Positions 1,868 to 23,650 of a stretch of 64,000 bases of DNA are shown here, piece after piece. The notes under the pieces were generated by a model. That model made no database searches and was not told the origin of the DNA. It saw only the letters and a program-made list of their open reading frames with translations. Source of the DNA: Candidatus Thiodiazotropha sp. (ex Epidulcina cf. delphinae) (GTDB lineage Bacteria > Pseudomonadota > Gammaproteobacteria > Chromatiales > Chromatiaceae); contig JAHXHS010000003.1 of the NCBI GenBank assembly GCA_025656455.1, positions 1-64,000 of the forward strand. The letters are read 5' to 3'. A program made the translations under genes and the position numbers. The first letter of the stretch is position 1. Each line of letters starts with the position of its first letter.

Positions 1868-1936
1868 CTTGGTGATTGACTTTCTGGAAAAATTTGAATA
1901 TCTTTGCCAGGAAAGAGAACTTATAGAGAACATACC

Positions 1937-7021: not shown

Positions 7022-7070
7022 ATTGACCTCCAAATCGCTTTATAAAGTGATCGCGTTATCCGCATTGTGT

Positions 7071-7340
7071 TAGGGCCTGTTAACACTAATTTGATAGCCA
7101 CTGCCAAGACCCTGTTTTTGTCCAGCAAGGCAGAAGGAGCGCCGTGTAGCTGAGTCTACATAAGCGACTGATAACGCCGCTGGGCGAAAACAGGGCCTTG
7201 GCCCTTCGGGTTGCGCCTGAAAAAGCGCCACTCGGCGTTACTCGTCGCTTATTTGGAACAACCAAACTACGCTCCTCGTGCCTTGATTGGCGCTTTTTCA
7301 GGCACAACAGTGGCTATCAAATTAGTGTTAACAGGCCCTA
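7071..7340. mobile_element. MITE with perfect 33-bp terminal inverted repeats
   Basis: The ends 7071-7103 and 7308-7340 are exact inverted copies starting TAGGGCCTGTTAACAC. The flanking TA/TTA context suggests a 2-3 bp target duplication as for IS630- or IS5-like elements. The interior carries a second inverted pair around 'ccaagaccctgttttt'. No open frame encodes a transposase, so it is non-autonomous. It sits between two genes of the 14-gene run, 3' of DFP-E and 50 bp before the 964-aa gene. Confidence 0.88.
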
Positions 7341-7387
7341 AGGCCCTGGCTAAGACACCTTCATACTTGACTCTCGCATTCACGAAG

Positions 7388-8869
7388 TCAGGGGGCTGCC
7401 GTCTGTCCGCTGATGGCTCCGGCCGGGTTCGATAGCCTGTGCGTCATGGCGCCCGCCGCGGGCGTAGCAGCGGCCGCGCTGGCTGCCGGCCGTTCTTCAG
7501 CGCCTCCACCGGACGCTGTACGACCGCTGGCTGCCGGCCGTTCCTCGGCGCCTCCGCCAGACGCACTGCGGCTATCGGCGGCGGGTCTCTCCGTTGTTTG
7601 CCTGTCGCTTGTCTGCTCGGCGGGCGCCGGGCGGGCCCTTGCACCGCTGCCACTATCCCCTTGATTGGCGCGTCTGCGCGCCTCTTCGGCGCGTTCTACC
7701 TGGCGATTGGCCTGGTGGGCCCGCTGGGTGGCGGCGCTGGTGTCGGGCCGGGTCGGTTGCGCCGTCGCCCGGGTTGGTGTGTTGCCAAGCAGTGACCCCA
7801 GTTCGCGCTCACGTTCAGGCACCATGGTCTGGGACTGGATTTGTTGCAATGACCGGTCACCGGCCATCCGGGAGACATCGAGGGGCAGGGTCCTGAATCG
7901 CAAGTTGACCGATGACCGCAATCCGGCCGATGCGGCGATATCCTCGCGGCTGTAGCGCTCATCCGAATGGACAAAGCCGACGTTGGCGGTCATTTTCGCG
8001 CTGGCGCCCCAGGCGCCGACGCCGAAACTGCCGCCGGCCTCGGTAATGATCCGGGAGTCCACACTGTCCAGTTGTGACTGTTCCGCGATGCTGCGGGCAT
8101 CCACCTGCAGGCGCATCGATGCCTGCAGATGTCCGTCGTCCACCACCACCCGTTGCAGCCCCATCATGATCATGGTCGACAGCAGCGACTGTCTGTCCCG
8201 CGCCAGTTTGCGCTGCACCAGGGGCAGCAGGGTGGTGGTCAGGTCTGAATCGTCGATGTTGTCGACCTCTTCGCTGCCCGCCTCCAGCGTTGCTTGCAGC
8301 ACGCTGCGCTCCGGAAGGTCGGCCTCGTCGCTCAATATGAGTTCGGCCTCGTCGTCATCCCCAAGCTCGACGCTCATTCCGGGGAAGCGGGACGCCGCCC
8401 ATTGCGCGGCCTGAGCCGGACCGATTTGCTGCGCGCCGAACTCTGCTGAGGAAGTATTCACCGCCTCCAGCAGATCGGCGAAGGATTGCAGTTGTTGGAT
8501 GTTCGAGTTCTGAATCGACTGGAAGACGCCGTTGATCAGCGAAGTGACAAAACCCGGGAAATCGATGGCGTTCTTCAGCGCCTCGACCGTGCCGGCCGCC
8601 GAACGGACCGCGCTGCGGCCATGGATATCGCTGGCCTGCTGCGCCCTGGCCAGGAGGGGGGCGGCTTGTCGCTGTTCCCGTCGAGCGGTTATCGTCCTGT
8701 CCAGCGCCTGCTCCGTGGCAATCAGCTCGGCCGCGGCCATCGATACATTGACCATCCGATTCGCCACCTGGCGGCTCAGGGCCGGGTGTTGCTTCAGCGC
8801 TGGCGTCGCCTCGATAACGGATCTGACGGCTCGCCGCACAATGGCCAGGGTTTCCGTCCGATCGGTCAC
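7388..8869 (-). CDS. DFP-family protein E (493 aa) with repeat-bearing tail
   Basis: Most diverged of five paralogs in this run. The shared core is present: AIDFPGFVTSLINGVFQSI at residues 101-119, then MIMMGLQRVVVDDGHLQA near 233-250, then the beta-rich end SSVNLRFRTLPLDVSRM near 319-335. Unlike the others it has a long disordered tail (about 350-493), rich in Ala/Arg/Glu/Gln, with two tandem copies of a block including ASGGGAEERPAAS. GTG at 8869 is the likely start: GTGA overlaps the TGA stop of the upstream gene, indicating translational coupling. A longer in-frame start at 8992 would run deep into that gene. No signal peptide and no known family; function unknown. Confidence 0.8.
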   Translation of the reverse strand: MTDRTETLAIVRRAVRSVIEATPALKQHPALSRQVANRMVNVSMAAAELIATEQALDRTITARREQRQAAPLLARAQQASDIHGRSAVRSAAGTVEALKNAIDFPGFVTSLINGVFQSIQNSNIQQLQSFADLLEAVNTSSAEFGAQQIGPAQAAQWAASRFPGMSVELGDDDEAELILSDEADLPERSVLQATLEAGSEEVDNIDDSDLTTTLLPLVQRKLARDRQSLLSTMIMMGLQRVVVDDGHLQASMRLQVDARSIAEQSQLDSVDSRIITEAGGSFGVGAWGASAKMTANVGFVHSDERYSREDIAASAGLRSSVNLRFRTLPLDVSRMAGDRSLQQIQSQTMVPERERELGSLLGNTPTRATAQPTRPDTSAATQRAHQANRQVERAEEARRRANQGDSGSGARARPAPAEQTSDRQTTERPAADSRSASGGGAEERPAASGRTASGGGAEERPAASAAAATPAAGAMTHRLSNPAGAISGQTAAP

Positions 8870-9744
8870 CGGAAACCACCCCGTAGACCCTGGGCCGCGG
8901 CCAGCCAGGCCTCCGCGTTGTGGATCAGCGGGTGATGTCTGGCGATCAGGCGGCTGTTGGCGACGATTTGTCCCCCCTCCCGGGCAAACCATCGCAGCAG
9001 TTCGACACCGTTTTGGGCGAGTTGCAGATGGAGCGAGAACTGAGGCTGGTAACCGATCAGGGACGGCGCCCAGCGCTGCAGCATAAAACCGGCCGAGCCG
9101 CCGCCGAGGGCCTGGCTGATCTCCCTATCCGCCAGCGCCTCCAGGGCGGCCCTGATCTGCCCCACAATGTCTCGCGCCGCGAATCCACTAATGCCGACGG
9201 CGCGATCCGATAGCCCCCTGGTCAGGTCATGGATCTGCCAGGCGGCCCTGGTCTGAAGATGCAGAATGGCGTTGTCCATCGGCTCTCTGCCGATGGCGGC
9301 CAGGGCCCCGGCTGTCTGCCGCAACTGCTGATGAAGCCGGCCCTCGACGCCGGCATCGAGAACCTGGCGATAGAGCATCTGCCGCTCGGGCGCGGTGAAG
9401 CGGTGTTGCGCGCTGCGCCAGAACGGCCGCAGTTTGTCGGCGGCATGGTGTATCGGCAGGGTGAGTTGACCGGTGAAGACCCTTTCCGCCAGGGTCTCGA
9501 CAAAGGCGAGCACCCCTGCCTGTTCGACCTGGTCGCACCAATAGAGCACCGCGGCGCTGTTGACCTGGGCCGCTACGATCTCTCCCGGACGCTCCAGGGG
9601 CGGCAGATCCACCATCCCCAGGCCGTAGTTGCCATGGACCCGGGTCACCGATGCGATGTGCTCCGCCAGCAGGTGTTCGCAACAGGAGAGGCCCGCCGCC
9701 AGGTCGTCTTGCTCTAGAGGGGGGTGGGGTAGACAACTGCCCAT
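8866..9744 (-). CDS. 292-aa operon protein sharing a module with the 619-aa protein
   Basis: I do not recognise a database family. By eye it aligns with the C-terminal half of the 619-aa protein at 14448-16307. VLYWCDQVEQAGVLAFVETL matches VIYYCAQLEEMRLFATVDTV, followed in both by an aromatic segment and by ERQMLYRQVLDAG versus ERRGLYARVLGLA. Further on, IVGQIRAALEALADREI matches VVQEMIDMLSDTEI, and LLRWFAREGGQIVANS matches IISWLARKAPILSSAS. The two genes are therefore paralogous over about 200 residues. The protein is helical and has no signal peptide or membrane segment. It starts 3 nt after the DFP-D stop and ends inside the GTGA of DFP-E. Confidence 0.78.
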   Translation of the reverse strand: MGSCLPHPPLEQDDLAAGLSCCEHLLAEHIASVTRVHGNYGLGMVDLPPLERPGEIVAAQVNSAAVLYWCDQVEQAGVLAFVETLAERVFTGQLTLPIHHAADKLRPFWRSAQHRFTAPERQMLYRQVLDAGVEGRLHQQLRQTAGALAAIGREPMDNAILHLQTRAAWQIHDLTRGLSDRAVGISGFAARDIVGQIRAALEALADREISQALGGGSAGFMLQRWAPSLIGYQPQFSLHLQLAQNGVELLRWFAREGGQIVANSRLIARHHPLIHNAEAWLAAAQGLRGGFR

Positions 9745-9746
9745 GA

Positions 9747-10844
9747 TCAGCCTTCCCCGGTGGTATTGATCTGATTGACCGCATCGATCTGGGTCTGCGA
9801 AGCGAGCTTTTCCAGGGGAAATGTCTCGCTCTTGAAGTTCACCCGCACTTCGCCGCTAAGCTTGGCCTTGGTATCGATGGAGGATTGGCTGGTCTCTTCC
9901 ATGGCCGAGCTGACCACTGTGCGGGCGCCCGAGCGGCTGGTGACATCGTCAGAGAACCAGCCGCCGCTTTCGCTGCGGGTATGGGAGTACTTGGAATCGT
10001 AGTCCGATGCCCTGCGGTCGCGTTTGGCCTTGTCCTTGGTCCTGACGTCGATCATTACCTTGGCGTTGATCAAACCGTCCGTGACCACCACCCGGTTGAT
10101 GCCGAGAACCACCATGGTGGCGAGTTGCTTCTGTCTCAAGCGGGCCATCTCCAACTGGCCCCGCTGCGCCAGGGCCTGTTCGCTCTCCTCCGTATCCAGG
10201 TCGATCGATTGCTCCATGCCCAGGCTGTTTTGCACTTCGTCCAGGCCACTCTCCTCGGCATACTCGGTCAACGCCAGTTTCGGCTGTCCCATTTCCACGC
10301 TGGTGCTCAGGTGGCGGGGAAAGCGGTCGGTAAGCCAGTCCCGTCCCTGATTCAAGGTGAAGTTGTCGGTGGCGAATTCGTTCACACTCTTGACCACGCT
10401 CTCCAGAAGCTTCGCATAGGCGTCCATCTGTCGCAGCGAGGCGGTCACGATACTGTTGAACACGCCGTCGATGAGGCCCGAGACGAATTCGGGGAAGTCC
10501 ACCGCATTGACCAGGTCTTTGAATACCTCGGCACCCTCTCTCGCCGCCGCACCGGTGAAGTCGTTCTGCACGATGCCGTCGCTGGAGCCGCCGCCCCCTC
10601 GCCGTTTCGCTTGTGCAATGGCGACCGGGTTATCGGGAAGGTCTCCGGCAATGGCGTTCGGCACTTCCTGTCCCGCTTTGGCGTCGGCGAGATAGGCGAC
10701 CACATTGACCAGTGAGTTCGCCATGCCGCGGCGTTCTTCCGCCGGCAGGCCCTGAAAGGTGTCAGTGCGCTCCAGCAGGTCGCGCACCTGCTGGCGCACC
10801 ACGGTCTGTTTTTCCGGGGTAAGGGATTGCAGTGCGTCGCCCAT
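9747..10844 (-). CDS. DFP-family protein D (365 aa)
   Basis: Paralog of the proteins at 7388, 10844, 11994 and 18919. The N-terminal helix pair (EKQTVVRQQVRDLLER, residues 11-26) matches DFP-C. The hallmark AVDFPEFVSGLIDGVFNSI is at 114-132. The segment NQGRDWLTDRFP follows near 165-176. MVVLGINRVVVTDGLINAK is near 244-262 and the beta-rich KLSGEVRVNFKSETFPLE near 328-345. The segment between the last two is Ser/Arg/Asp-rich and probably flexible. The start ATG overlaps the DFP-C stop as TGATG, so the two are translationally coupled. No signal peptide. Function unknown; the array of near-equal paralogs suggests subunits of one hetero-oligomer. Confidence 0.82.
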   Translation of the reverse strand: MGDALQSLTPEKQTVVRQQVRDLLERTDTFQGLPAEERRGMANSLVNVVAYLADAKAGQEVPNAIAGDLPDNPVAIAQAKRRGGGGSSDGIVQNDFTGAAAREGAEVFKDLVNAVDFPEFVSGLIDGVFNSIVTASLRQMDAYAKLLESVVKSVNEFATDNFTLNQGRDWLTDRFPRHLSTSVEMGQPKLALTEYAEESGLDEVQNSLGMEQSIDLDTEESEQALAQRGQLEMARLRQKQLATMVVLGINRVVVTDGLINAKVMIDVRTKDKAKRDRRASDYDSKYSHTRSESGGWFSDDVTSRSGARTVVSSAMEETSQSSIDTKAKLSGEVRVNFKSETFPLEKLASQTQIDAVNQINTTGEG

Positions 10845-11989
10845 CAGCCACCTCCCGGTGCGCCCTGCTCGGCAGGTACCGGCGGCGCCTGTCCGGAGCC
10901 CTGGGCGAGATAGTTGATCTGGTCGAACTGCAGGGCATCCAACATCCGCTCGGGCGGCAGGGTCTCGGAGCGGAAATTCACCCGCACGTCGCCGGAGAGC
11001 TTGGCCTTCATGTCGGCCGCGGACTCGCTGGTGTCATCCACTGAACTGCGCACCATGGTGCGATGCCGTTGGGTTGTGCTCACGCCGCCCCCGCCGCCCC
11101 CCCAGGGGGCGATGCCGAAGCCGCCGGCAAACGCCTTGGTGGTGGATGAGGTAGTATCGGTCAGACCGGCGGACGCCTTGCGCTCCGCCAGGTCGCTGGC
11201 GGTGATATCGAACACCACCTTGGCATTGATGCGGCCGTTGGTGACGATAATGCGGTTGATGCCGAGCAGGACCATCAGCGCCATCAGCTTCTGTCGCTGG
11301 CGGGCCATCTCCAGTTTGGCGGCGTTGACCAGTTTCAGTTCCGACTGAGGATCGTCCAGGTCCACGGTTTGGCCCTCGCCGGCCAGGGCCTGCAGCGCCG
11401 AGGCGTCATCGGCCTCTTCCCGTAGCTGGAGTTGCGCCCCCTCAGCCGTGTTGGCGATGCGCACGACGCTGGGATGGCGCGAGGCGATATGCTCACGCGC
11501 CTGGGCGTCCGAGATATGGTCACTGGCAAACTGGCCGACGGTCTTGCTGGTTGCCGCCAACAACTCGCCATAGGCCTCCATTTGTTGAATGGAGGCGTCC
11601 ACGATCGCCTGGAACACTCCTTGAATCAGGCCGCTGACGAATTCGGGGAAATCGACCGCGTTCACCAGTTGCTTGAAGGTCTCGGTGCCCTCGCGCAGCG
11701 CGCCTGCCTTGAATTCGGCGCCGACTTGCCCCGGCTTTTCCGCCAGGCGCTTCTTTAAATCGTCGACCGGTCCCAGCGCAGCGGCGAGATCGGTGCGCTC
11801 TTCCGGGATCTCAGTGTTCAGCCAATCGGGATCCCGCGCCAGATAGCTGCTCACCTTGACCATGTTATTGGCCAGTTCGCGGCGCTTTTCCGGCGCCATG
11901 GTGCGCCAGTTATCGGAACTCTCCAGCACCTGACGCACTTCTCGGCGCACCAGATCCAGATCGTTGCGATTTGTTGCAGGATCAGCCAT
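10844..11989 (-). CDS. DFP-family protein C (381 aa)
   Basis: Closest to DFP-D and DFP-B. N-terminal helices (DLDLVRREVRQVLESSDNW) lead to the hallmark AVDFPEFVSGLIQGVFQAI at residues 112-130 and the helix VDASIQQMEAYGELL. LLGINRIIVTNGRINAKVVF is at 241-260. A Gly-rich loop follows (GFGIAPWGGGGGG, about 290-302). The beta-rich KLSGDVRVNFRSETLPPE is near 330-347. I chose ATG 11989, 4 nt after the DFP-B stop, with CGGAG upstream; an in-frame start at 12115 would overlap DFP-B by 120 bp and begin with a basic low-complexity stretch. Cytoplasmic by composition; no known family. Confidence 0.82.
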   Translation of the reverse strand: MADPATNRNDLDLVRREVRQVLESSDNWRTMAPEKRRELANNMVKVSSYLARDPDWLNTEIPEERTDLAAALGPVDDLKKRLAEKPGQVGAEFKAGALREGTETFKQLVNAVDFPEFVSGLIQGVFQAIVDASIQQMEAYGELLAATSKTVGQFASDHISDAQAREHIASRHPSVVRIANTAEGAQLQLREEADDASALQALAGEGQTVDLDDPQSELKLVNAAKLEMARQRQKLMALMVLLGINRIIVTNGRINAKVVFDITASDLAERKASAGLTDTTSSTTKAFAGGFGIAPWGGGGGGVSTTQRHRTMVRSSVDDTSESAADMKAKLSGDVRVNFRSETLPPERMLDALQFDQINYLAQGSGQAPPVPAEQGAPGGG

Positions 11990-11993
11990 GCGC

Positions 11994-13340
11994 CTATGCT
12001 CCGGTTGCGGCTTCCTGCGTTGCCTCTGTCGCTGGGGTCGCTGAGTCGTTGCTGGGCGCGCCGGCGCCACGGCCAGCGCTGCGGATGCCTTCGAGCTTGA
12101 AGATATCCGCCTCACTGATGACCTTGTTCAGATCCACGGTCTCGGATTTGAAATTCAGGTCGACGGTGCCGGCCAGTTGGCCCTTGGCCTCCAGTTCCGC
12201 CTGACTGCTGCTCTGGGTCACGTTGGTGAGCGTTACCATGGGTGCGGTGGTGGTCTGATGAGAGGAACTCGACCAGCGACTGCTCTCCCCGGAGCGGCTG
12301 CCGCTGCGCCAGCCGCTGCCGCTGCGGTAGTTGCTTGACTTGTAGTCCTTGCCGGTGCTGCTCTCGGATTCGTAGGCGCTCTGCTGGGTGGTGATATCGC
12401 CCTGGTTCTCATAGTCATAGTCGGTGGCGGTGGATGCGCCGAAATCACGGGAAGTGAACTGGAAGTTCATGCGCGCATTGATGCGCCCGTTGGTGACCAC
12501 GATCCGATTGATGCCCATCAGCAGGGTGGTCGCCAGCAGCGCCTGGCGCGACTTGGCCAGGTCATTTTTGGCCGCGGGGACCAGCTCTTGCTCGATCGTC
12601 TCTTCGTCGAGGAAATCGACGGGATTCTCTAATCCCAGCATGCCTTGGAGATCCGGCAGGTTCTCGCTGTCCGCGTCCGGCCTCAGCCCTACCTGTGGGC
12701 CCTGGTCGCCGATATTGACCTGAAACAGTTGCGGCGCCTTGCTGACCAGATGGTCGCGCGCCTGGTTCTCGGTGACATTGCTGTCGCGGAAGTCGCTGAG
12801 GCTCATGGTCACGCTCTGCACCAATTCGCCGTAGGCCTTCATCTGATCGATGCTGGCGTCGACCACCGCCTGGAACACCCCCTGAATCAGCTCCGCCACG
12901 AACGCCGGGAAGTTGACCTGGCGCACCATCTCGCCGGTGGCCGTCACCCCGGTGGTGACCGCTGAGCCGAAATCGGAGGTCGGGCCTTCGGTAGGCAGGA
13001 TGTCCCGGTTGGCATTGGGCTGGGCACCGCCGGTGAAGGTGGTGGAGTCGGAGCCGCGGCTCGGACTTTGGCTCTGGCCTGGCAAAGGCATCTGCGGCAG
13101 TTCGATCAACGGCACGGCATAGGGATCGCTTCGCGCCATGGAACGCCGGCCCGGCGAGGGCCGTTCCGAGCCGATCTGCGCCAGCTCGTTGTTGGCCATG
13201 GTCTCGACCACATCGGCCGTGTCCGCCCTGATCTGCGCCTGTTGCTGTGGCGGCAACTGATGAAACGCAGCCGAGCGATTCAACATTGCATCGACCTGAC
13301 GCTCTACCTCATGGCGCCCCTGCTGCTGTATCGGTTTCAT
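11994..13340 (-). CDS. DFP-family protein B (448 aa) with Ser/Tyr/Gly-rich loop
   Basis: Paralog of DFP-A, C, D and E. N-terminal helices (EVERQVDAMLNRSAAFHQLP) are followed by SDPYAVPL (71-78), a short motif shared only with DFP-A (ADPYAIPL). The hallmark QVNFPAFVAELIQGVFQAV is at 141-159, with Asn replacing the first Asp. MGINRIVVTNGRINAR is at 275-290. Residues about 300-370 are an unusual Ser/Tyr/Gly/Thr-rich insertion before the beta-rich LAGTVDLNFKSETVDLN (389-405). ATG 13340 has GGGAG 7 nt upstream and lies 19 nt after the preceding stop; an earlier in-frame start (13526) would overlap the 354-aa gene. Confidence 0.82.
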   Translation of the reverse strand: MKPIQQQGRHEVERQVDAMLNRSAAFHQLPPQQQAQIRADTADVVETMANNELAQIGSERPSPGRRSMARSDPYAVPLIELPQMPLPGQSQSPSRGSDSTTFTGGAQPNANRDILPTEGPTSDFGSAVTTGVTATGEMVRQVNFPAFVAELIQGVFQAVVDASIDQMKAYGELVQSVTMSLSDFRDSNVTENQARDHLVSKAPQLFQVNIGDQGPQVGLRPDADSENLPDLQGMLGLENPVDFLDEETIEQELVPAAKNDLAKSRQALLATTLLMGINRIVVTNGRINARMNFQFTSRDFGASTATDYDYENQGDITTQQSAYESESSTGKDYKSSNYRSGSGWRSGSRSGESSRWSSSSHQTTTAPMVTLTNVTQSSSQAELEAKGQLAGTVDLNFKSETVDLNKVISEADIFKLEGIRSAGRGAGAPSNDSATPATEATQEAATGA

Positions 13341-13359
13341 GCATCTCTCCCATTGTTGG

Positions 13360-14424
13360 TTAAACGCGATAGGCGTCCTGGGGCTGCGGCGCGCTGCCCG
13401 GTCCGGCGGCGCTCCGTCCTTGCCGGTCATAGCCGCTGGGGCGCAGGTAGAGGGAGCAGCGGGCCGGCGTTTCCGGCAATACCCGGACACTGATGACGCC
13501 GATTTCTCCAGGTCCCTGCATGTCATCCGGTGTCATGGCCTGCACCCAGCGATGCAGGTTGGACTGGGAACTTGGACGTTCAGACAGCACCATGTTGAGC
13601 AACTGGTACATCTGCTGGGGAGGATCCGGCAGACCGGCCACCAGCACATCCAGTTTCATCTCCAACCCCTTGTTGGTGTCGCGTAGACCGATGATCACCG
13701 AACCTTGAGGCAGCACGAACCGCCCACCGAATATCACCCCTGCCGCTGCCAGCAGACTGGGAAGCTGTTTACCTATGCCCAACTGGTTCAACAAGGGCTC
13801 AAGGTCCAGCAGTCGCAGGTCCCCGCGGTGGAAAAAATAGACACGCTGCGCGCCCCGGCCACGGCCACAGGCGATGGAGGTGAAGATGGGGGTCAGCTCT
13901 GGCATGATCTCCATCACGATGCGGGCGGCGTGTTTCAGGTTCGGCGGCAGGTTGTCGATGTCGCTTTCGCGCATTTCGTAATAGACCTTGCACTCCTGCA
14001 ACCCATAGGCGTCGGTCGCCATGCCGAACCAGGCGCCAAAGCGGGTGTCGCCGTGAGACATGCCGTTGCGCCAACGCTCGGAGCGCTGATCGAACCAATG
14101 CAATGCCTCTTTGCCGTAGTGCTGATGGGTAAGGCGGCGCATCTCACGGCTCGCCTCCTGCTGCCTCGCGTGGGCCGTGGCTTCAGGCCCCAAAGGCTGC
14201 ATGTCCAGCCGCAGCGCATTGCCCGCCACCTCCGAAAAACTGTGCTCCAGGGGGAATCTCCCTGGGGTCAACAGATTGTTTCCGTAGCGGGGATCGTGCG
14301 CCGGGAGGTGGAAACTGCGATCGAGCAGTCCCCCTATCGCTTCGGCGGGGTTTTTCGTACCCAGTCTCCGCGACGCCATTTCCATACGCCGCTTGGCCAG
14401 TTCTGATGCGGTAGTCACGCGCAT
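13360..14424 (-). CDS. 354-aa operon protein, unknown
   Basis: I do not recognise a family with confidence. From about residue 130 the protein shows spaced, similar beta-alpha units: KVYYEMR, QRVYFFHRGDLRLLDLEPLL, LEMKLDVLVAGL and VISVRVLPETPARCSLYLRP. That spacing recalls the alternating units of ABBA-fold aromatic prenyltransferases, but the sequence alone is not enough to assign it. There is no signal peptide. It lies 23 nt after the 619-aa gene and 19 nt before DFP-B, so it is co-transcribed with them. Confidence 0.72.
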   Translation of the reverse strand: MRVTTASELAKRRMEMASRRLGTKNPAEAIGGLLDRSFHLPAHDPRYGNNLLTPGRFPLEHSFSEVAGNALRLDMQPLGPEATAHARQQEASREMRRLTHQHYGKEALHWFDQRSERWRNGMSHGDTRFGAWFGMATDAYGLQECKVYYEMRESDIDNLPPNLKHAARIVMEIMPELTPIFTSIACGRGRGAQRVYFFHRGDLRLLDLEPLLNQLGIGKQLPSLLAAAGVIFGGRFVLPQGSVIIGLRDTNKGLEMKLDVLVAGLPDPPQQMYQLLNMVLSERPSSQSNLHRWVQAMTPDDMQGPGEIGVISVRVLPETPARCSLYLRPSGYDRQGRSAAGPGSAPQPQDAYRV

Positions 14425-14447
14425 GCTGATACCCTCCGGTTAGTGCC

Positions 14448-16307
14448 TTAGATTTGCGGAACCGCTGGCATCGCGGGCAATTCGATGCCGGCCTGATCGA
14501 GCGTGTTCTGGATGCCGGCCTGAAAGCCCGTGTTTTGACCCAGCATCGGTACCGTGAGCTGGGCATCCAGGTCGACCGGATCGGTATGGCGTTCGGCCAT
14601 CTCGTCGGTGGTGCCGGTGACGGCAAGCCAGCGCTCCGCCAACTCCGCCAGGGTGAAGAAGTCATTGGTCGGGCGGCGGTTTCCCCGGCCGTCGAAGGTG
14701 GTTATTCCCAAACCAAGCGCAGAGGCGCTGGAGAGTATCGGCGCCTTGCGCGCCAACCAGGAGATGATGCGCTCACCGCTTGCCGCCATGGTGCGGAACT
14801 TCACCCCGTTCGCCGCACCGTTCAGGTAGAGGGCGCTGACGCGATCGACCAGTTGCCAGATATCCCTCACGCCGTAGGAGCGAAGAATCTCCGTGTCACT
14901 GAGCATGTCGATCATCTCCTGCACCACGCCCTGCATTTCGATCGCCGCCGGCGCGGTAATACCGTAACCGTGCAGTGAAATATTGACGGCCAGATCGCGG
15001 CCGGCCTTGTGTATCTGCTCATCGCTCACCTGTGAACGTTCGGAACTGGTGATTTCGCGGAACTTGAGGCTGACGCTGGCCAGGAATCGGAACCACAGAT
15101 CACTGAACTCTCGGTTGGGCAACGGCTCATCCACACTCCCTTGGGCGAGACCCAACACCCGCGCATAGAGGCCACGGCGCTCGAATTCGTTGATGCGTTC
15201 GGGGGCGCGCTTGATCCAGCGATAGATGCGATCCAGCCCCGGTCCGCGACTGATCGGCAGCATCCCGGAAGTGGCATGCTCAACCACCGTGTCGACGGTG
15301 GCGAACAGCCGCATCTCCTCCAGTTGGGCGCAGTAGTAGATCACCCTGACCGCATGCAGATTGTCGGGGATGATCTCGACATGGGTGCCCGCGTCGAGAT
15401 CGGGCAGACTGATGCCGAAGGCGGAAAAGTTCCCATCCAGACCGCCGGACCCCGATGCGCTGCTGATGGTCCGGGCAATGACGCTCTGAATGGTAAGCCG
15501 GATATTGGGGTCGTTGGGATTCACGTTGTCACGAATCAGGCGTTCGGTCACATCCGCGAGTTGCTTGGCGCTGATCGTGACAGTGACTTGAGTGCCGTTG
15601 AATTTGCCTTGACTGTGCTCGTGCAAGCCACGATAGACCTGCTTGTACAATTCGCTGTAAGCACTGTACTGCTGCATCGCCTCGGTAAAACGGGTGATGA
15701 ACTCCGCGACGATCAACACCCGGAAGTGATAGAAGCGCTGGGTCGGCGGATTGGTTGAGCGATCCGGCCCGCGGGGGTCGGGCTCTGTGCCGAAGGTCTC
15801 GACCTTTACCGGACGAGAGCTTTCCGGCACCCACACGATATTTGCCGAAGAGACATCGTTTTCAGGCTGCGGCGCTGTGCGCATGCTGCCGCGAGGAAAC
15901 AGGCGGGCGAACTCCGATTCCTCATCCATGTCGATGTCGGCGTCTTCGACATCCTTGAGATATTTAGACCAACGCTCGATACGGGCAAAGGAGGGATCCT
16001 CATACCCGGCCAGTCTCAATTGACCGATGATCGCCAAAAAGCGGATCTTGTCTTCGTTGAAATAGTCCGGAATCTTTTTGCTTGGATCATTCGGATCATC
16101 GACCTTGTAGTAATCCTTGAACTGACTCGGGTCCGGCGTCAGTGGCGGATTGCCGGGATCATCGTTGGCCCGGTCGATACTGAACAACTCACTCAACAGG
16201 TGGCGAATAGCGAGATACAGGCGCTTGTTGGTGATATTGACCTCGTTGGTCGCGCCACCCGGCAGGTTTTCGTTAAATATCTCTGGAAATTTTTCTTTGG
16301 TGGTCAT
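14448..16307 (-). CDS. 619-aa operon protein sharing a module with the 292-aa protein
   Basis: Start ATG 16307 has GGAGG 9 nt upstream; the open frame continues upstream into the subtilase gene, but that extension is in the wrong context. The N-terminal 130 residues are acidic, with a Pro/Asp-rich loop (DDPGNPPLTPDPSQ). The middle part includes FYHFRVLIVAEFITRFTEAM, which loosely resembles the membrane-independent helix of the DFP hallmark. Residues about 345-540 align with the 292-aa protein at 8866-9744 (VIYYCAQLEEMRLFATVDTV, ISWLARKAPILSS). It ends with a Pro-rich tail. No known family, no signal peptide. The duplicated module suggests two related structural subunits. Confidence 0.78.
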   Translation of the reverse strand: MTTKEKFPEIFNENLPGGATNEVNITNKRLYLAIRHLLSELFSIDRANDDPGNPPLTPDPSQFKDYYKVDDPNDPSKKIPDYFNEDKIRFLAIIGQLRLAGYEDPSFARIERWSKYLKDVEDADIDMDEESEFARLFPRGSMRTAPQPENDVSSANIVWVPESSRPVKVETFGTEPDPRGPDRSTNPPTQRFYHFRVLIVAEFITRFTEAMQQYSAYSELYKQVYRGLHEHSQGKFNGTQVTVTISAKQLADVTERLIRDNVNPNDPNIRLTIQSVIARTISSASGSGGLDGNFSAFGISLPDLDAGTHVEIIPDNLHAVRVIYYCAQLEEMRLFATVDTVVEHATSGMLPISRGPGLDRIYRWIKRAPERINEFERRGLYARVLGLAQGSVDEPLPNREFSDLWFRFLASVSLKFREITSSERSQVSDEQIHKAGRDLAVNISLHGYGITAPAAIEMQGVVQEMIDMLSDTEILRSYGVRDIWQLVDRVSALYLNGAANGVKFRTMAASGERIISWLARKAPILSSASALGLGITTFDGRGNRRPTNDFFTLAELAERWLAVTGTTDEMAERHTDPVDLDAQLTVPMLGQNTGFQAGIQNTLDQAGIELPAMPAVPQI

Positions 16308-16392
16308 GGTCTGGTTCCTCCAGTAATCAAAGAGTGCTGAACATGTAAAGCGCGCTGTTTTGCCTCTCGCGGAGGCGGTTGTGGCCCCAGAT

Positions 16393-17859
16393 TCATCGGG
16401 AAGCCTCCGTGGAATCGCGTGCGGCGAGGGGCATGATGGGCAGCCACTGATCCCCTGCCCTGGACAGGGCCCTTTCCAGACCGCGTAAACTTGCCGGAAC
16501 GTCCAACACACCGGCGCCGCATCCCCTGCTGTCGGAGCCGATGGCAAAGGGGCGGGCATAGGCGCTGAGAAACGATTTGACGGTGGCAGCGTCCAGGGGC
16601 CTGCCGTAACGCGCCGCGCGGGAGAGCAACAGGGCGCAGGCGCCGGTGACGAAGGGCGCGGCAAAGGAGGTGCCGGTATTCTCTTGGTATTCGCCGTCCA
16701 GGGTCGCGGCCAACACGTCTTCGCCAGGGGCGCAGAGCAGGACATGGTCGCCGCGGGTGGAAAACGCTGACGGCTCACTGCGCGGGTTCACGGATCCCAC
16801 GGCCAGGACCTCCGGGTGAGCCGCCGGGAAATAGCGCTGGAACGCCCCGTCGTTACCCGACGCGGCAACCAGGATACAGCCGCGCTGCAAGGCATACTCG
16901 ATGATATCCTGATGGGGCATGGGATCATCGTCCCTCAGCGCGCTCGCCGGGGTGCCAAACGACAGATTGAGCACCCTCACGCCAAGGTCGACCAGGGTCT
17001 TGACGGCTTGATCGATATCGGGGAGGGAGCCCATTGCCGTCAGGTGATTGCTCTCCAGCATCCTGACCCCGGCGAGGGCACGGGCTGGAACCAGTTGGGC
17101 GGCGCCCGCGAGGCCTTTCGGCATACGTTGTCCCGTGGCGGCGATGATCGATGCGCAGGCGGTCCCGTGACCGATCTCGTCCCTTGGGATGCGGTCGGGA
17201 TTCTCGCTGTCGCCCACCAGATGGACATCGCCGGTCAATATCTGGGTGGGCAGATCCACGGTGTCCACCCCAGGCCGCAGCGCGGCAAGCAGCTCTGGAT
17301 GGCCCAGATCGACCCCGCTGTCGACGACGCCGACCTGCAGCGCCCGGTCGCCGGGTTCAAACCCAAGCGCCTCGGCCACGCCGACCATGTTTTGCGCATA
17401 GAAGGGGTCGGCGGGGCGGTCGTTGCCGTAACGGCGGTCAAGCTCGAACGGGGTATCGCACAGGTAGTGGGGCGTGGCCAGCTCCACGTTCGAGAGGCCG
17501 CGCAGGGTGTCGAGCAGATGCAGCAGACGGGTGTCTGGGTCGATATCGATGCGATAGGTTCTGGCCAGGCCGATGCGTTCTTCGATGTTGTCCCAGGCGT
17601 TGGCGACCGGGCTGCCGAGCAGCGGCGCGCGGGACGGTTGATAGGCCCGGGTCACCTGCATGGCGTGACTGTGGCGCCGTATCGCCCGATCGACGTTGCC
17701 CCGGTCGAAGTGCAGGGGCGCGGCCAATACGCCTGTCTGAAGATAGTGCGGCGCATTGCGAGGCCCGTCGTCATTCGCCATCTTGAGCAAGATGCGGCCC
17801 CGCAGGGCGCGGCGGGTGTGATCCGGCGACCAGGGTTGCGAAGGCGCCACATCTACCAT
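16393..17859 (-). CDS. Subtilisin-like serine protease (S8) of the operon
   Basis: A 488-residue peptidase of the S8 family with an intact triad: D180 in VGVVDSGVD, H231 in GHGTACASI and S398 in GTSFAAPFVTG, with oxyanion N336 in VAASGN. About 150 residues precede the catalytic domain and contain no signal peptide, so it is either intracellular or exported by another route; this region could act as a propeptide or docking part. Its ATG overlaps the end of the TIG-like gene by 7 bp. With the papain-like protease at 2976-4070 it gives the locus two protease types, fitting proteolytic maturation or a protease payload (inference). Confidence 0.93.
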   Translation of the reverse strand: MVDVAPSQPWSPDHTRRALRGRILLKMANDDGPRNAPHYLQTGVLAAPLHFDRGNVDRAIRRHSHAMQVTRAYQPSRAPLLGSPVANAWDNIEERIGLARTYRIDIDPDTRLLHLLDTLRGLSNVELATPHYLCDTPFELDRRYGNDRPADPFYAQNMVGVAEALGFEPGDRALQVGVVDSGVDLGHPELLAALRPGVDTVDLPTQILTGDVHLVGDSENPDRIPRDEIGHGTACASIIAATGQRMPKGLAGAAQLVPARALAGVRMLESNHLTAMGSLPDIDQAVKTLVDLGVRVLNLSFGTPASALRDDDPMPHQDIIEYALQRGCILVAASGNDGAFQRYFPAAHPEVLAVGSVNPRSEPSAFSTRGDHVLLCAPGEDVLAATLDGEYQENTGTSFAAPFVTGACALLLSRAARYGRPLDAATVKSFLSAYARPFAIGSDSRGCGAGVLDVPASLRGLERALSRAGDQWLPIMPLAARDSTEASR

Positions 17860-18683
17860 GACTTGATCCCCCCGACCCGGCGCATCGGCTGCCGCGCAGC
17901 GAACGGGTCGGCGTTCGGCTCGGTCGGCAATTCATAGAATCCGCCGGTCATTTGGCCGCCAACCTCCACCTCGAACCGCCCCTCCCGATGATGAGACATG
18001 GGTTTGACCAGCAGCTCGCTCTCCGAGGCCTCGAGCACCTCCACCGGCTCCCCTGACATCAGCACCCTTGGCGTCTCTCCCTTCATCAGGTTGGCGCCAC
18101 GGATGCGCAACAGTCGCCGCTTGTCCGCTCCCTGCACCGGTTCGTTGCCGGTCACTGTCGGTTGTGCGCTACGCTCCAGCGCCATGCGCAGGCGGTTGAC
18201 CGGAATACCCAGGTAGGCCTCCACCTGTTTGGGATCGGTGTTTTGCGACAGCCGTTTGAACTGGCCGACGGTGCGAATCCCGACCATTTCCAGTTGCCGC
18301 CTCTCTTGTTCGCCCAGCCCGCCCTGTTCGGTGATCTCGCTCAGCGCGCGCGGGTCTTCGTCCTGACTGAGAGAGAGACTGTTTTCCTCTGCCATGGCCC
18401 TGGTGATGGTTGTAAACGAAAGATGCACGGTGCTCGCCCCCTCTTCGTTGGGATTGGCGTGACGAAGCCTCAATTGCCCCTCAGGCGCCTCCCAAAACAC
18501 CTTTAAATCGACACTCAGATCCTTCAACGCGAAGGTCAAGGGCCGGCCGGTTTTCGCCTTGATGGCGAGCGCATCCTGGGCGCGGTCCAACTGCGCGGTC
18601 AGGCTTTGCACGAACTCCTCCACTGAGAACACCGGACCGCTTCCCGACCCTGTTCCCAATCCCGATCCCAGGTAACCGCTCAC
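17853..18683 (-). CDS. 276-aa protein with HhH-like and TIG-like segments
   Basis: Three parts can be seen. Residues about 20-105 (EEFVQSLTAQLDRAQDAL to VHLSFTTITRAM) have a helix followed by strands and resemble the small 'trypsin-co-occurring' (trypco2-like) domains found beside peptidases; this match is by pattern only. Residues about 115-175 (GLGEQERRQLEMVGIRTVGQ) look like a helix-hairpin-helix. Residues about 190-265 (LLRIRGANLMKGETPRVLM) form an IPT/TIG-like beta domain. No signal peptide. It overlaps the 80-aa gene by 4 bp upstream and the subtilase by 7 bp downstream, so expression of the three is tightly coupled. Confidence 0.72.
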   Translation of the reverse strand: MSGYLGSGLGTGSGSGPVFSVEEFVQSLTAQLDRAQDALAIKAKTGRPLTFALKDLSVDLKVFWEAPEGQLRLRHANPNEEGASTVHLSFTTITRAMAEENSLSLSQDEDPRALSEITEQGGLGEQERRQLEMVGIRTVGQFKRLSQNTDPKQVEAYLGIPVNRLRMALERSAQPTVTGNEPVQGADKRRLLRIRGANLMKGETPRVLMSGEPVEVLEASESELLVKPMSHHREGRFEVEVGGQMTGGFYELPTEPNADPFAARQPMRRVGGIKSW

Positions 18684-18922
18684 TCGGCTTCACTCCGCAC
18701 GAAGCTGACCCGGAGTCGTCCATGTGGCGCATCGAATCCGGTGGCCAGGCGGCCGTGGGGGAGCGTGACCGCCAACTCACCCGCTTCGTCGATGGTCGAT
18801 TCGATCGGCACGCTGAGTGAGAAGGTCTTTACCCCGAGCCCCTCTCCCGTATCCGCCTCAACAACGGCTGACGGCAGGTCGCTGCTGAGATCTACCAGAA
18901 ACTCAGAGACTCGCTGTTTCAC
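18680..18922 (-). CDS. 80-aa beta-rich operon protein, unknown
   Basis: A small protein with alternating strand-like segments (VKTFSLSVPIEST, GELAVTLPHGR, GRLRVSFVRSE) and an acidic N-terminal helix. It overlaps the upstream DFP-A gene by 4 bp (ATGA-type) and the downstream 276-aa gene by 4 bp, so the three are translationally coupled. Its size and position next to a TIG-like protein suggest an adaptor or a domain split off from it. No family recognised. Confidence 0.7.
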   Translation of the reverse strand: MKQRVSEFLVDLSSDLPSAVVEADTGEGLGVKTFSLSVPIESTIDEAGELAVTLPHGRLATGFDAPHGRLRVSFVRSEAE

Positions 18923-20136
18923 GGGCCACCTGAACTTTCACTATCGGGCATCGCCGTTTGCGGTTCGGCGGCCGTGTCGGTCGGAACTGGGTTTGCGGTG
19001 ATCGCCGCCCCCGGCGGTGCTTCACGTGACAGCGAATGGCGCGAAATCACCTGGATGATCGAGGCATCCGCGAAGTTGTTCAGATCGAAGGTCTCGGTGC
19101 GGAACTTGAGCGACACTTCGCCGACAAGATCCGCCTTGATCGCCACATCCGCCTGGGAGTTCACGTCGACCGTGCTCACCATGGTGGTGACGGCGCTTTG
19201 CAGACTGTTTTGCCGGCCGGCGATGCCGATCTGCTGTCCGCCGCCCTGGGAGACGATGTCGGCGCTGACCTTTTCCCGGGCGCGGGCGTGAAACTGCAGG
19301 CGCGCTTTCAGTTGACCATCGTCGACGACGATGCGGTTGATCCCCATCAACACCATGGTGGCCAAGTTGCGCATGCGCTCTTCGCCCAACTGTTGACGGC
19401 TGGCGTCGAGCAGTGGCCCCTCGATCAACTCAGGGGTCAGGGAGGCCCCGCCAAGACCATAGTTTTCCAGCCAATCGGGGGACGCTTCCGCATCGTCAGC
19501 AGCATCTACCCTGGGCTCGAAGGACTCCCCTGGACCGGGCAAGACCATTCGTAAGTCCCGGGAGTGCCGCTCCACCAGTTGATCGCGGGCCTGGTTGACG
19601 GAGACATTGGTATGGGTGAACTTATCCACTGTCTGGGACAGGTCCGCGACCAGTTTGGCGTACTCGCGGACCTGTTGCGATGTGGCGTCGACAATGGCGA
19701 CGAATGTCCCTTGAATGAGTTCAGCGACGAATGAGGGGAAGTCGACCGCCTCCAGCGCCCGACGGGCGCGCTCGCCGAGGATCTCCGTGCCTGCCGGTTG
19801 TCTGGGTCGTGGTTCGCTAGCCGGCGCCGCGGGTCGATCGAGCTGTGTTCGATCACCCTGGGATTGTCGCCTGGTTCCGCCCACCCCGATCAGGTCATTG
19901 GGCGTGGCCAGCGGTATGGCATAGGGATCCGCCGAATAGGGGGCGGCGGCAGTGCCGTATCCTTGAGCGGACCGGCCGTGGAGAGGACCCTCGGAAGAGG
20001 CCCCGAGCAGGGCCGATTCGATGCGGCCGAGATGGTAGTCCAGACTCGCTCTTTCATCGGCGCTCAATGTGCCGTATCCCGGAGAGCGCCTGAGCGCCTG
20101 GGTGGCCTGGAGTGCTTCCCTGGGCAGATCGGACAC
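18919..20136 (-). CDS. DFP-family protein A (405 aa)
   Basis: First DFP paralog in transcription order. The N-terminus carries ADPYAIPL (69-76), also seen in DFP-B, then a Pro/Arg/Gln-rich linker. The hallmark AVDFPSFVAELIQGTFVAI is at 130-148, with the following helix VDATSQQVREYAKLV. NQARDQLVERH is near 181-191, MGINRIVVDDGQLKARLQF near 264-282 and the beta-rich DLVGEVSLKFRTETFDLN near 336-353. It lies 1 nt after the stop of the 588-aa gene and overlaps the 80-aa gene. No signal peptide or membrane segment. Function unknown. Confidence 0.82.
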   Translation of the reverse strand: MSDLPREALQATQALRRSPGYGTLSADERASLDYHLGRIESALLGASSEGPLHGRSAQGYGTAAAPYSADPYAIPLATPNDLIGVGGTRRQSQGDRTQLDRPAAPASEPRPRQPAGTEILGERARRALEAVDFPSFVAELIQGTFVAIVDATSQQVREYAKLVADLSQTVDKFTHTNVSVNQARDQLVERHSRDLRMVLPGPGESFEPRVDAADDAEASPDWLENYGLGGASLTPELIEGPLLDASRQQLGEERMRNLATMVLMGINRIVVDDGQLKARLQFHARAREKVSADIVSQGGGQQIGIAGRQNSLQSAVTTMVSTVDVNSQADVAIKADLVGEVSLKFRTETFDLNNFADASIIQVISRHSLSREAPPGAAITANPVPTDTAAEPQTAMPDSESSGGP

Positions 20137-20137
20137 G

Positions 20138-21904
20138 CTATCGGCTCTCGCTCAGGTAGTCGGTGGGAGCGGTCTGTTCGAAGCGACGCTTCAGTGCCGC
20201 GAGCCGCTCCGCGAACGGCGTTTTTTGCGCCAACACGGCGTCGAGCATCTGTTGGGGAGTGAGCACCACGATGGGTGAATTCGCCCCCATGCCGCGCAGT
20301 GCGCCGGTCAGCGCCGCATGGCTTAGCGGATCCCAGACGCCCGTTGCCTCTAGGCCCTGGGATGCCTGGAAGGCGGCCAATTGAGCGCTGCCCGTGACGG
20401 CCTGTAACGCACTGCTGATATCGGCCTCGGTCCGTATCGGGCCGATCATGTCCATTAACCAGGCGACGCCGCCGCCGATGCCCATTTCGACGATGCGATC
20501 CATGATCATCGCCGGGCCAAACGGCGCGTTGAGTCCCAGCCAGAAGGCGACCCGTTCGGCGGGATCGGCAACCCGCTCGACCGCCACTTCGTTCTGGGCA
20601 TACTGAATGTAAGGGACAGCGGCCGCGGCGCTGAACCGGCTGAGCCAGGGTTCCTGCCAGAGCGGGGCGCCGCCTAGCGGCTGCATCCTGGCATTGGGAT
20701 CCACGGTTCGGGCAGGATCGGTTTGCGCCAGCAGTTGCTCCCACTCCTCTCCAAACAGGGTGGAGAGACGCTGTTGCGGTTCGAGCGTCTGTTCCTGCTC
20801 AAGCCTCAATTCCCGGTCACGCGCTTTTCGCAGCACCTCTCCCAGTTCACCGCTCCTTTGCCTGAAACCGGCCAGGCCCCATCTCAGGCCCGCCTGTTCG
20901 TCGGCGAATGTGGTGGCATAACCCTGTGTGCCGGGCATGCCTTCGCTGACCAAGCGAAGCAGGCGCACCTTTTCCGGAATATCGAGGGGTTGGTTGGTAG
21001 CGGGCGCATCGCTCAAAGGCGCGGAGGCGGGACCGACGGGCAGCGCCAGTTCAGGCATGGAGGCGTTGTAGTCGGCCTTGCCTCCGATAGTCGCCGGGGA
21101 GACTGTCGGATCGTGCGACGACATCGGGTTGTACGGCGAACGCTGGTCCAATCCAGAGGCAGGGCCGGATGAGAAATGGTGCGGCCTTGCGGCGGCAATA
21201 TCGGAATAGGTCCCATTATGCGAGGTTACCGATCCCAGGGAGTCCCCGGTGTGATGGTTGCTGCTGTAGCCGTTACTCCAAGAGGAGGCGCTGGATGAAG
21301 ATTCAGCATAAGAGATGCCGTCGGCCTGCCACAGCTCATTGCTGAATCCATCATCGTATTCAAGCGCGCCTGAGGGCTGCTGAAGGGGCTGCCGGGCGAT
21401 TTCGTCCCGTAGACGAGTCAGCGAATCATCGCCTCCCCAACGCAGTAGCTGTTCCCTCTTTTCCGTGTAGCCGGCGTGGTGAGGCGATCCGTAGGCGGGC
21501 GGTCTACTGCGGCGATATCGATTCGAAGCGCGTAACTTTTCAGTGAGGCGAATCCTCGGAACCTGATTCAAGGCGTGGGGAGAGATTGAGAACCTGGGGT
21601 CATCGCCCTTTTTGTCTCCATAGGAGCCGATGGCGTAGTAGAGACTTTTATTACCGGAGAATCGCTCCGCCTGATCCTGCGGCATCAGAAAGGTATGAGT
21701 GTCCCCGTTTGATTGCATGAGGCCGTGATTGCGGCTGGTGTAAAAGTTTTGCGGGCTTCTATACCTCGCATAGTCCGGGTGGTATAGATTGGGGTCTGTC
21801 GCGCATACGATTTCATAATGGCGTCCGGCAGGGACTCTCACCATGAAGGATATGACTGGAAAACGTTCAGATACGATTCGCCGACAAGGAGTGATTGTTT
21901 CCAA
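20138..21904 (-). CDS. Lysozyme/chitosanase-like protein with PG-binding-like C-terminus (588 aa)
   Basis: First gene after the sigma54 promoter. TTG 21904 is favoured by a GAGG box 9 nt upstream; ATG 21844 lacks one. Residues about 115-290 are low-complexity (Ser/Tyr/His/Pro). From about 300 (IPEKVRLLRLVSEGMPGTQG) there is a lysozyme/chitosanase-like module with a candidate catalytic Glu in VSEG, continuing to LWQEPWLSRFSAAA. Near the C-terminus AAFQASQGLEATGVWDPLSH matches the PG_binding_1 repeat. The likely role is cleaving or gripping peptidoglycan or a related glycan. No signal peptide, so it would have to be delivered with a particle or released by lysis. The fold assignments come from motif reading. 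Confidence 0.7.
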   Translation of the reverse strand: METITPCRRIVSERFPVISFMVRVPAGRHYEIVCATDPNLYHPDYARYRSPQNFYTSRNHGLMQSNGDTHTFLMPQDQAERFSGNKSLYYAIGSYGDKKGDDPRFSISPHALNQVPRIRLTEKLRASNRYRRSRPPAYGSPHHAGYTEKREQLLRWGGDDSLTRLRDEIARQPLQQPSGALEYDDGFSNELWQADGISYAESSSSASSWSNGYSSNHHTGDSLGSVTSHNGTYSDIAAARPHHFSSGPASGLDQRSPYNPMSSHDPTVSPATIGGKADYNASMPELALPVGPASAPLSDAPATNQPLDIPEKVRLLRLVSEGMPGTQGYATTFADEQAGLRWGLAGFRQRSGELGEVLRKARDRELRLEQEQTLEPQQRLSTLFGEEWEQLLAQTDPARTVDPNARMQPLGGAPLWQEPWLSRFSAAAAVPYIQYAQNEVAVERVADPAERVAFWLGLNAPFGPAMIMDRIVEMGIGGGVAWLMDMIGPIRTEADISSALQAVTGSAQLAAFQASQGLEATGVWDPLSHAALTGALRGMGANSPIVVLTPQQMLDAVLAQKTPFAERLAALKRRFEQTAPTDYLSESR

Positions 21905-22231: not shown

Positions 22232-22468
22232 CCTAGAATCCTCAGTTGACCGCTCCAACGTAAAGGTATGGTGCTGATATGAAAGCGGTAAGTATCGACT
22301 TGCCCTTTCACCCCATGGATGAATCACGCTACGGGGTGAATTGCACGCTTGCGGCGGCACGGGGCTGCGTTACAACTCCTTGGAATAGAATAACTATTCC
22401 GCGTCGTTGTGCCTTGCCCCGCACCCCCGCAAACGCACACTTCACCCCGTCCAACTGAGGATTCTAGG
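22232..22468. mobile_element. 237-bp MITE with 17-bp TIRs and 5-bp target duplication
   Basis: Ends CCTAGAATCCTCAGTTG (22232-22248) and its exact inverse (22452-22468) are flanked by direct repeats ATCAC (22227-22231 and 22469-22473). No transposase frame inside. It lies in the 700-bp gap between the sigma54 promoter of the operon and the activator gene, i.e. in the region where activator-binding sites would be expected. Confidence 0.88.
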
Positions 22469-22609: not shown

Positions 22610-23650
22610 TTATTCAAGATTGTAATTCAAGCCATTTATTTTTTTAAAAATTGTTCGATTATGTATGCCCAATCTCTGGGCGGCGCGGCTTCTGTTGTTT
22701 TTTTCTGCTCGCAAAGCCGCGCATATCAGTTTCTTTTCACAAAAAGCCATCGCCTCGCCAAGAGAAAGACCGTTGGATTCAACGAGTTGCCAGAGATCGA
22801 CTACGCTGTCATTCAGCTCTGCCTGATGGCTCGGTGAGCGCAGCTCCATTGAGATCTCAACATTATCGATATCGATAAGGTGATGCTTTGAGAAAATCAT
22901 TGCCCGCTCAATGCAGTGTTTGAGCTCTCTGACATTACCTGGCCAATCGTAAGCGTTAATCAGTGACATGGCTCTGTCTGAGATACGGTATTTTCCACCG
23001 CCGAGGATGTTGAGAAAATGCCGGGCGAGCACCTCGATATCGTCTATGCGTTCTCGCAGCGGCGGGATTTTCAGATGCACCACATTCAGGCGATACAGCA
23101 GATCTTCTCGGAAGCGCCCCTCGCGCACCTCCTCTTTCAAGTTGCGGTTGGTAGCGGCCAATACCCAGACATCATTGGCCTTTTCAATCCGATCCGAACC
23201 GACTGGGCGGTACTCTTTTGACTCGAGAAAACGGAGGATTTTCGCCTGGAACTGCAGGTTGGATGAGTTGATTTCGTCGAGAAAAAGCACCCCTTTGTTA
23301 GCGGCGTTTATCAGTCCCTTGCGTTCCGCTGCGCCGGTAAACGCTCCCCTTGCATGGCCAAAAAGTTCAGACTCGATAAGCTCTTCGGGTAAAGCGCCGC
23401 AGTTGACCGGTATAAAAGGCGCGGGCGAACCGAAGGCGTGTTCATGCAGGGCCTTGGCCAGCACTTCCTTTCCAGAGCCGGTCGGACCGCTTATCAGCGT
23501 GGTGCATTTTGCCCTGGCAACAGCGGGTATTTTATCAAATAGTGCGCTTATAGCTCTGGATGATCCAATCATAGTTGTTCTGTATCCCTTAATGAGCATT
23601 CGGCTAATGACTAACTCGCTATCTTGTTCCCTGCTGTATTTGTTCGCCAA
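22610..23650 (-). CDS. Sigma54-dependent transcriptional activator without sensory domain
   Basis: An AAA+ bacterial enhancer-binding protein of 346 residues. Walker A is in SGPTGSGKEVLA, the sigma54-contact loop is GAFTGA, Walker B is GVLFLDEI, and the arginine-finger region is present (FREDLLYRL). The C-terminus has a Fis-type helix-turn-helix (NRSRAAQRLGIHNRTIFKKI). Only about 30 residues precede the AAA+ domain, so there is no receiver, GAF or PAS input; such activators (PspF type) are usually held off by a partner protein. It sits between the two -24/-12 promoters of the window and is the natural candidate to drive both the 14-gene run and the 24133 gene. Confidence 0.95.
   Translation of the reverse strand: MANKYSREQDSELVISRMLIKGYRTTMIGSSRAISALFDKIPAVARAKCTTLISGPTGSGKEVLAKALHEHAFGSPAPFIPVNCGALPEELIESELFGHARGAFTGAAERKGLINAANKGVLFLDEINSSNLQFQAKILRFLESKEYRPVGSDRIEKANDVWVLAATNRNLKEEVREGRFREDLLYRLNVVHLKIPPLRERIDDIEVLARHFLNILGGGKYRISDRAMSLINAYDWPGNVRELKHCIERAMIFSKHHLIDIDNVEISMELRSPSHQAELNDSVVDLWQLVESNGLSLGEAMAFCEKKLICAALRAEKNNRSRAAQRLGIHNRTIFKKINGLNYNLE

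What the first reader, a model, noticed from the sequence alone, without database searches (positions are those of the whole stretch)
7388..20136. Five paralogs with one core but different loops
DFP-A to E keep three blocks in order, but the loop between the GINRxVVxxG block and the beta end differs: Ser/Tyr/Gly-rich in B, Gly-rich in C, Ser/Arg/Asp-rich in D. E adds a repeat tail. Only A and B carry DPYAxPL. Stepwise duplication with specialised surfaces fits a ring or filament with non-equivalent subunits.
Basis: partly seen in the sequence, partly recalled or inferred. Interest (0 to 1): 0.7.

Follow-up and report, generated by a model that had tools for sequence, protein, structure and literature searches.

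The report
Conserved operon with non-equivalent paralogous proteins
Five related proteins of no known family sit in a rare, horizontally moved bacterial operon beside an intact protease and cell-wall- or protein-cutting enzymes; each copy keeps its own gene position, ancestry and loop length across several phyla, which points to an undescribed multi-part machine built from non-interchangeable subunits.

Summary
DFP-A to E are collinear homologs over an N-terminal three-helix domain, a helical core and a long beta hairpin whose tip is the variable loop. They lie in a tight operon: [sigma-54 activator]-effector-A-80aa-Trypco2/TIG-S8 protease-G14-G13-B-C-D-X8-E. Its order is conserved in over 30 genomes of Pseudomonadota, Myxococcota, Gemmatimonadota and Actinomycetota; a single-DFP version occurs mainly in cyanobacteria. 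In a 140-row tree the copies group by gene slot, not species; within-genome duplication is rejected (AU p=1e-5). Loop length follows the slot (eta2 0.77; B longer than A in 33/33 genomes); DPYA among DFPs occurs only in slots A and B. Stepwise duplication with specialised, non-equivalent subunits is supported; ring or filament is untested. No Pfam, PHROGs, NCBIfam, PDB or BFVD match exists for DFPs; a distant tie to DUF2589 is suggestive for slot E only. The effector slot carries a shared N-terminal domain plus variable lysozyme-like, amidase, papain-like and trypsin domains; S8 is intact in all 42 scorable sequences. Best reading: a protease-controlled, hetero-oligomeric conflict or lysis system; mechanism inferred (about 0.4).

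The parts
18919..20136 (-). DFP-A, 405 aa, slot A, DPYAIPL in the linker
   Evidence: overlaps the start of the 80-aa gene by 4 bases
11994..13340 (-). DFP-B, 448 aa, longest loop (90 aa, Ser/Tyr/Gly), DPYAVPL
10844..11989 (-). DFP-C, 381 aa, Gly-rich loop
9747..10844 (-). DFP-D, 365 aa; AlphaFold2 model m9c02d115da15 (pLDDT 74.9, pTM 0.48)
7388..8869 (-). DFP-E, about 493 aa from GTG 8869, repeat tail, most divergent paralog
8866..9744 (-). X8, 292 aa, paralog of the C-terminal domain of G14; no Pfam hit
13360..14424 (-). G13, 354 aa, conserved in the multi-DFP operons only, no Pfam hit
14448..16316 (-). G14, 622 aa, mostly helical, in multi- and single-DFP operons; no Pfam hit and no significant fold match
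16393..17859 (-). S8 subtilisin-family protease, intact Asp/His/Ser
17853..18683 (-). adaptor-like protein; its family carries Trypco2 and TIG domains
   Evidence: Trypco2 in 11/33 homologs (best E 1.7e-6), TIG in 6/33 (4.4e-6), none in the window copy itself:
18680..18922 (-). G186, 80 aa, conserved small protein
20138..21904 (-). G20, 588 aa, effector-slot protein: conserved N-terminal domain (..RFP..FYTSR..) plus probable GH46/lysozyme-like C-terminal part
   Evidence: GH46 in 6/37 slot proteins; chitosanase, E 0.69, not significant alone
22610..23650 (-). sigma-54 activator (AAA+ and Fis-type HTH)
   Evidence: same place in L001, L009, L010, L019, L080
22001..22016 (-). sigma-54 -24/-12-like site TGGCACAAAGTGTGCA in front of the operon
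   Evidence: one mismatch; 2 found against 2.6 expected in 64 kb, so only its place is telling
4127..7033 (-). G968, lone downstream protein, no relative found in the other loci; membership uncertain
2976..4070 (-). C70 papain-like cysteine protease, homologous to domains of effector-slot proteins elsewhere; membership uncertain
   Evidence: (E 1.3e-27)

Best explanation
The operon encodes a horizontally moved multi-component conflict or lysis system. Shown: DFPs are four or five ancient, slot-fixed paralogs with one predicted architecture (N-terminal three-helix domain, disordered linker, helical pair, long beta hairpin with a slot-specific loop), encoded together with an intact S8 protease, a Trypco2/TIG adaptor family, G13/G14/X8 and a slot whose protein has a common N-terminal domain and changing hydrolase domains. 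Inferred: the DFPs co-assemble through their common core into a hetero-oligomeric scaffold; the slot-specific loops and the DPYA linker motif of A and B bind different partners (adaptor, protease, effector); after sigma-54-dependent expression and on a trigger, S8 cleaves a component and releases or activates the effector, which attacks peptidoglycan or proteins and kills or lyses a cell.
For: Operon order conserved over four phyla; tree by slot and AU test; loop length by slot and DPYA among DFPs only in A/B, DPYA also in tails of some Trypco2/TIG proteins; S8 triad intact in 42/42; effector slot Peptidase_C70 20/37, C39_2 10, Trypsin_2 7, C92 7, GH46 6, Amidase_2 4 with a shared N-terminal domain; Trypco2 in adaptor homologs, a domain described in peptidase-armed conflict systems (PMC7159879); sporadic distribution (0 of 21 congeners) at a site whose flanking gene is in all 15 congeners searched; plasmid copies.
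Against: No ATPase/NTPase sensor or other hallmark of a named defence system in the conserved core; PADLOC gives only subtilase models. No oligomer, cleavage site or membrane activity was tested. DFPs lack any fold match, so 'scaffold' is an inference from paralogy. The target of the effector (own cell or another) is unknown.
Confidence: 0.4

Rival explanations
1. DFPs are pore formers: the long hairpin with a Ser/Gly-rich, partly amphipathic tip inserts into a membrane after S8 cleavage, as in protease-activated gasdermin or aerolysin-like pores.
For: Long beta hairpin with a flexible tip in the model; E-type and DUF2589 loops share a glycine-rich alternating stretch; a protease next to the pore protein is common for bacterial gasdermins (PMC9612521).
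Against: B and D tips are strongly polar and charged; no fold match to a pore former; no DFP segment above 1.65 on a 19-residue Kyte-Doolittle scan.
Confidence: 0.2
2. An exported particle or antibacterial weapon: DFPs, G13, G14 and X8 form a body that carries cell-wall hydrolases to other bacteria.
For: Effector slot with a conserved N-terminal domain and variable peptidoglycan-active domains, like polymorphic toxins; PG_binding_1 protein in a cyanobacterial operon.
Against: No obvious membrane segment in the operon proteins, no tail, sheath or baseplate family, no immunity gene recognised.
Confidence: 0.22
3. A housekeeping-type intracellular scaffold or storage body with no role in conflict.
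For: Large structural paralogs with low-complexity tails; no hydrophobic export signal seen.
Against: Rare and patchy presence, island position, plasmid copies and changing hydrolase domains.
Confidence: 0.1

Closest known systems
DUF2589 (PF11655)
   Same: Same layout: amphipathic helix, hairpin strand, Ser/Gly-rich loop, second strand; in most genomes where it was found it occurs as a tandem pair. The slot-E profile aligns end to end, hhalign probability 60%, 0/60 block shuffles as high.
   Different: Other slots score only 19-22, and slot A no better than its reversed control; no DFP reaches the Pfam model. DUF2589 is about half the size and lacks the N-terminal domain and the alpha/beta insert.
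Peptidase-armed conflict systems with Trypco2 (VMAP ternary and NucA-peptidase systems; PMC7159879)
   Same: Trypco2 adaptor, trypsin-like and S8 peptidases, lysozyme-like and papain-like cell-wall enzymes as variable effectors.
   Different: No vWA, MoxR, VMAP or NucA seen in the operon; only passages of that paper were read, and DFP, G13, G14 and X8 were not recognised in them.
Bacterial gasdermin and CARD-NLR systems (PMC9612521, PMC13236601)
   Same: Protease encoded with a putative structural or pore protein.
   Different: No gasdermin, CARD or NLR match; several DFP paralogs instead of one pore protein.

Membership tests
DUF2589 (PF11655) | match to the Pfam model above its cut-off | tested here: not met
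   no hit for A-E; 0 matches in the own genome even at E 10
DUF2589 (PF11655) | distant profile homology over the whole architecture | tested here: inconclusive
   slot E 60% probability, score 35.8 against 26.8 reversed; other slots 19-22, slot A equal to its reversed control
VMAP/MoxR-vWA ternary conflict system | MoxR ATPase and vWA protein in the operon | tested here: not met
   no such Pfam hit in the window operon proteins; none annotated in the B. pyrrocinia operon
VMAP/MoxR-vWA ternary conflict system | Trypco2 adaptor next to a peptidase | tested here: met
   11/33 homologs of the 17853-18683 gene match Trypco2, best E 1.7e-6; the neighbouring gene is S8. The window copy itself gives no hit.
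bacterial gasdermin system | gasdermin-family protein | tested here: not met
   no gasdermin family in Pfam, NCBIfam or PADLOC scans of the DFPs and partners
bacterial gasdermin system | pore formation after proteolysis | not testable with these tools
   needs biochemistry
phage tail-like or contractile injection particle | sheath, tube or baseplate proteins | tested here: not met
   no Pfam or PHROGs family in the operon proteins scanned; no phage record matches DFP-D
   only single chains could be predicted

The most novel reading that the evidence does not exclude
An undescribed bacterial machine: a hetero-oligomer of up to five ancient, slot-fixed DFP paralogs with G13/G14/X8 that a dedicated S8 protease and a Trypco2 adaptor turn into a killing or lysis device with exchangeable cell-wall and protein hydrolases, possibly with DUF2589 pairs as its minimal relatives.
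Probability: 0.35. Interest if true: 0.85.

Novelty: new variant of a known kind. Interest (0 to 1): 0.62.

Why it matters
Several gene families with no match in the libraries scanned (DFP, G13, G14, X8) are tied together here by a conserved operon found in four phyla, with a reduced single-DFP form mainly in cyanobacteria. If the inference is right, it is a new architecture for protease-controlled cell killing in bacteria and a natural case where gene duplication built a complex from non-equivalent subunits, with a one-subunit form still available for comparison.

Tried and rejected
Phage structural origin: no PHROGs match above noise and no phage record; a scan of viral contigs could not be run because the alignment had no sufficiently conserved stretch. 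Fold searches of DFP-D and G14: best Foldseek E 0.26 (PDB) and 0.026 (BFVD) for DFP-D, 0.95 for G14; best VIA Z 4.6 and 5.7 over short stretches, all in the range of chance. Recruitment of effectors through the DFP N-terminal domain: the domain is found only on DFPs in these loci. DFP-like core in G14: hhalign probability 0.2%. PDB sequence search with the DFP profile: nothing credible. Known defence models: only subtilases. First hhalign run was made with a wrong option and discarded. Literature: DUF2589 and DUF3467 each appear in one paper, neither about such a system.

Full report
Observation. The five proteins are real, on the minus strand, and collinear over their length. A profile of them finds only these five in the 5.0-Mb genome. 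Corrected starts: B at 13340, C at 11989, E at GTG 8869, which overlaps the stop of X8. The genes from G20 to E overlap or are spaced by less than 100 bases, as in one operon. A fourth common part, an N-terminal three-helix domain, was missed.

Architecture. The AlphaFold2 model of D (96 sequences, pLDDT 74.9, pTM 0.48) has helices 10-53, a disordered linker 58-98, a long helical pair (99-151, 219-249) with a small alpha/beta insert, and a long hairpin 257-275/319-337. The variable loop is the low-confidence tip 277-319. No solved or viral structure matches. This is a monomer model; pTM is low and says nothing of assembly.

Conservation. Fifty loci from named genomes were fetched. Where the contig is long enough the order is effector, A, 80-aa gene, Trypco2/TIG, S8, G14, G13, B, C, (D), X8, E, with some variation around X8. 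Eight further loci (six cyanobacterial, plus Skermanella and a proteobacterial MAG) have one DFP in the order S8-G14-DFP-(others)-80aa-Trypco2/TIG; two loci (L043, L048) show a DFP without the rest of the order. A B. pyrrocinia plasmid carries the full form and a Tolypothrix plasmid the single-DFP form. Within the window's genus none of 21 other genomes has DFPs, while the flanking gene 25144-26055 is in all 15 congeners searched. In a draw of 398 Pseudomonadota genomes only the own genome matched, with few candidates scored per genome, so this is a rough lower bound.

Paralogs. In a 140-row maximum-likelihood tree of the core, rows group by slot: ten label changes against 84 in shuffles; E is a group at 99, A is one side of a branch but with low support (7). 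The window's five held as one clade are rejected. D exists only in the window's clade, and Burkholderiales L004/L007/L025 duplicated B/C on their own. Loop length by slot: A 46-54, E 52-60, C/D 58-80, B 58-98; eta2 0.77 against at most 0.17 in shuffles. Related sequences are not independent, so the comparison inside each genome is the better one: B longer than A in 33/33 genomes, C/D longer than A in 26/26. DPYA in a DFP linker occurs only in slots A and B, in eight clusters (window, L001, L002, L015, L017, L019, L026, L028); the full DPYAxPL is rarer. DPYA also appears in tails of three Trypco2/TIG proteins, which makes a docking motif plausible, not shown.

Partners. S8 keeps Asp, His and Ser in 42 of 42 scorable sequences. 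The gene just before S8 in the operon belongs to a family of which 11/33 members match Trypco2 and 6/33 TIG. The effector slot (G20 in the window, multidomain proteins of up to about 1,580 aa elsewhere) shares an N-terminal domain and carries C70, C39-like, trypsin, C92, GH46 or amidase domains. G20 itself is only probably GH46-like. A sigma-54 activator precedes the operon in several genomes, and a -24/-12-like site lies between it and G20 in the window; the pattern is expected 2.6 times per 64 kb, so its position is the only argument.

Relation to DUF2589. Recalled from its pattern, then tested. Slot-E profile against 21 DUF2589 stretches: probability 60%, score 35.8, reversed 26.8, 0/60 block shuffles as high. 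Other slots score 19-22, with 0, 0, 1 and 2 of 60 shuffles as high for A, B, C/D and the single-copy type; slot A equals its reversed control. A lead, not a membership.

Mechanism. Shown: ancient, slot-fixed paralogs; constant protease, adaptor and G13/G14/X8; exchangeable hydrolases; mobility. Inferred: co-assembly, docking by loops and DPYA, S8 as trigger, killing or lysis as outcome. The rivals (pore, exported weapon, housekeeping scaffold) stay open.

Noticed in passing
window 1904-2923 (+): Integron integrase (TIGR02249, E 5.7e-140) beside the operon, its 3' end facing the C70 gene; whether it has a cassette array was not examined.
   Followed up: partly
window 7070-7341: 272-bp element with perfect 34-bp terminal inverted repeats between E and G968, MITE-like.
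   Followed up: partly
window 22331-22450: Imperfect 35-bp inverted repeat between the sigma-54 activator and the operon.
   Followed up: no
L080 18101-22698: In B. pyrrocinia the operon is followed by an adenylate/guanylate cyclase protein and a patatin-like phospholipase, possible further effectors.
   Followed up: no
L057-L074: DUF2589 genes come as tandem pairs in most genomes found, one beside an amidase-like gene (L061) and one fused to a TIG-like stretch (L062); the pair has no assigned function.
   Followed up: partly
L009 6088-6585; L080 1712-2119: DUF3467 protein between the sigma-54 activator and the effector in B. pyrrocinia, with a similar-looking protein in Sphingomonas leidyi.
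   Followed up: no
window 49737-50759 (-): REP-associated tyrosine transposase-like gene (NF047646, below its cut-off).
   Followed up: no
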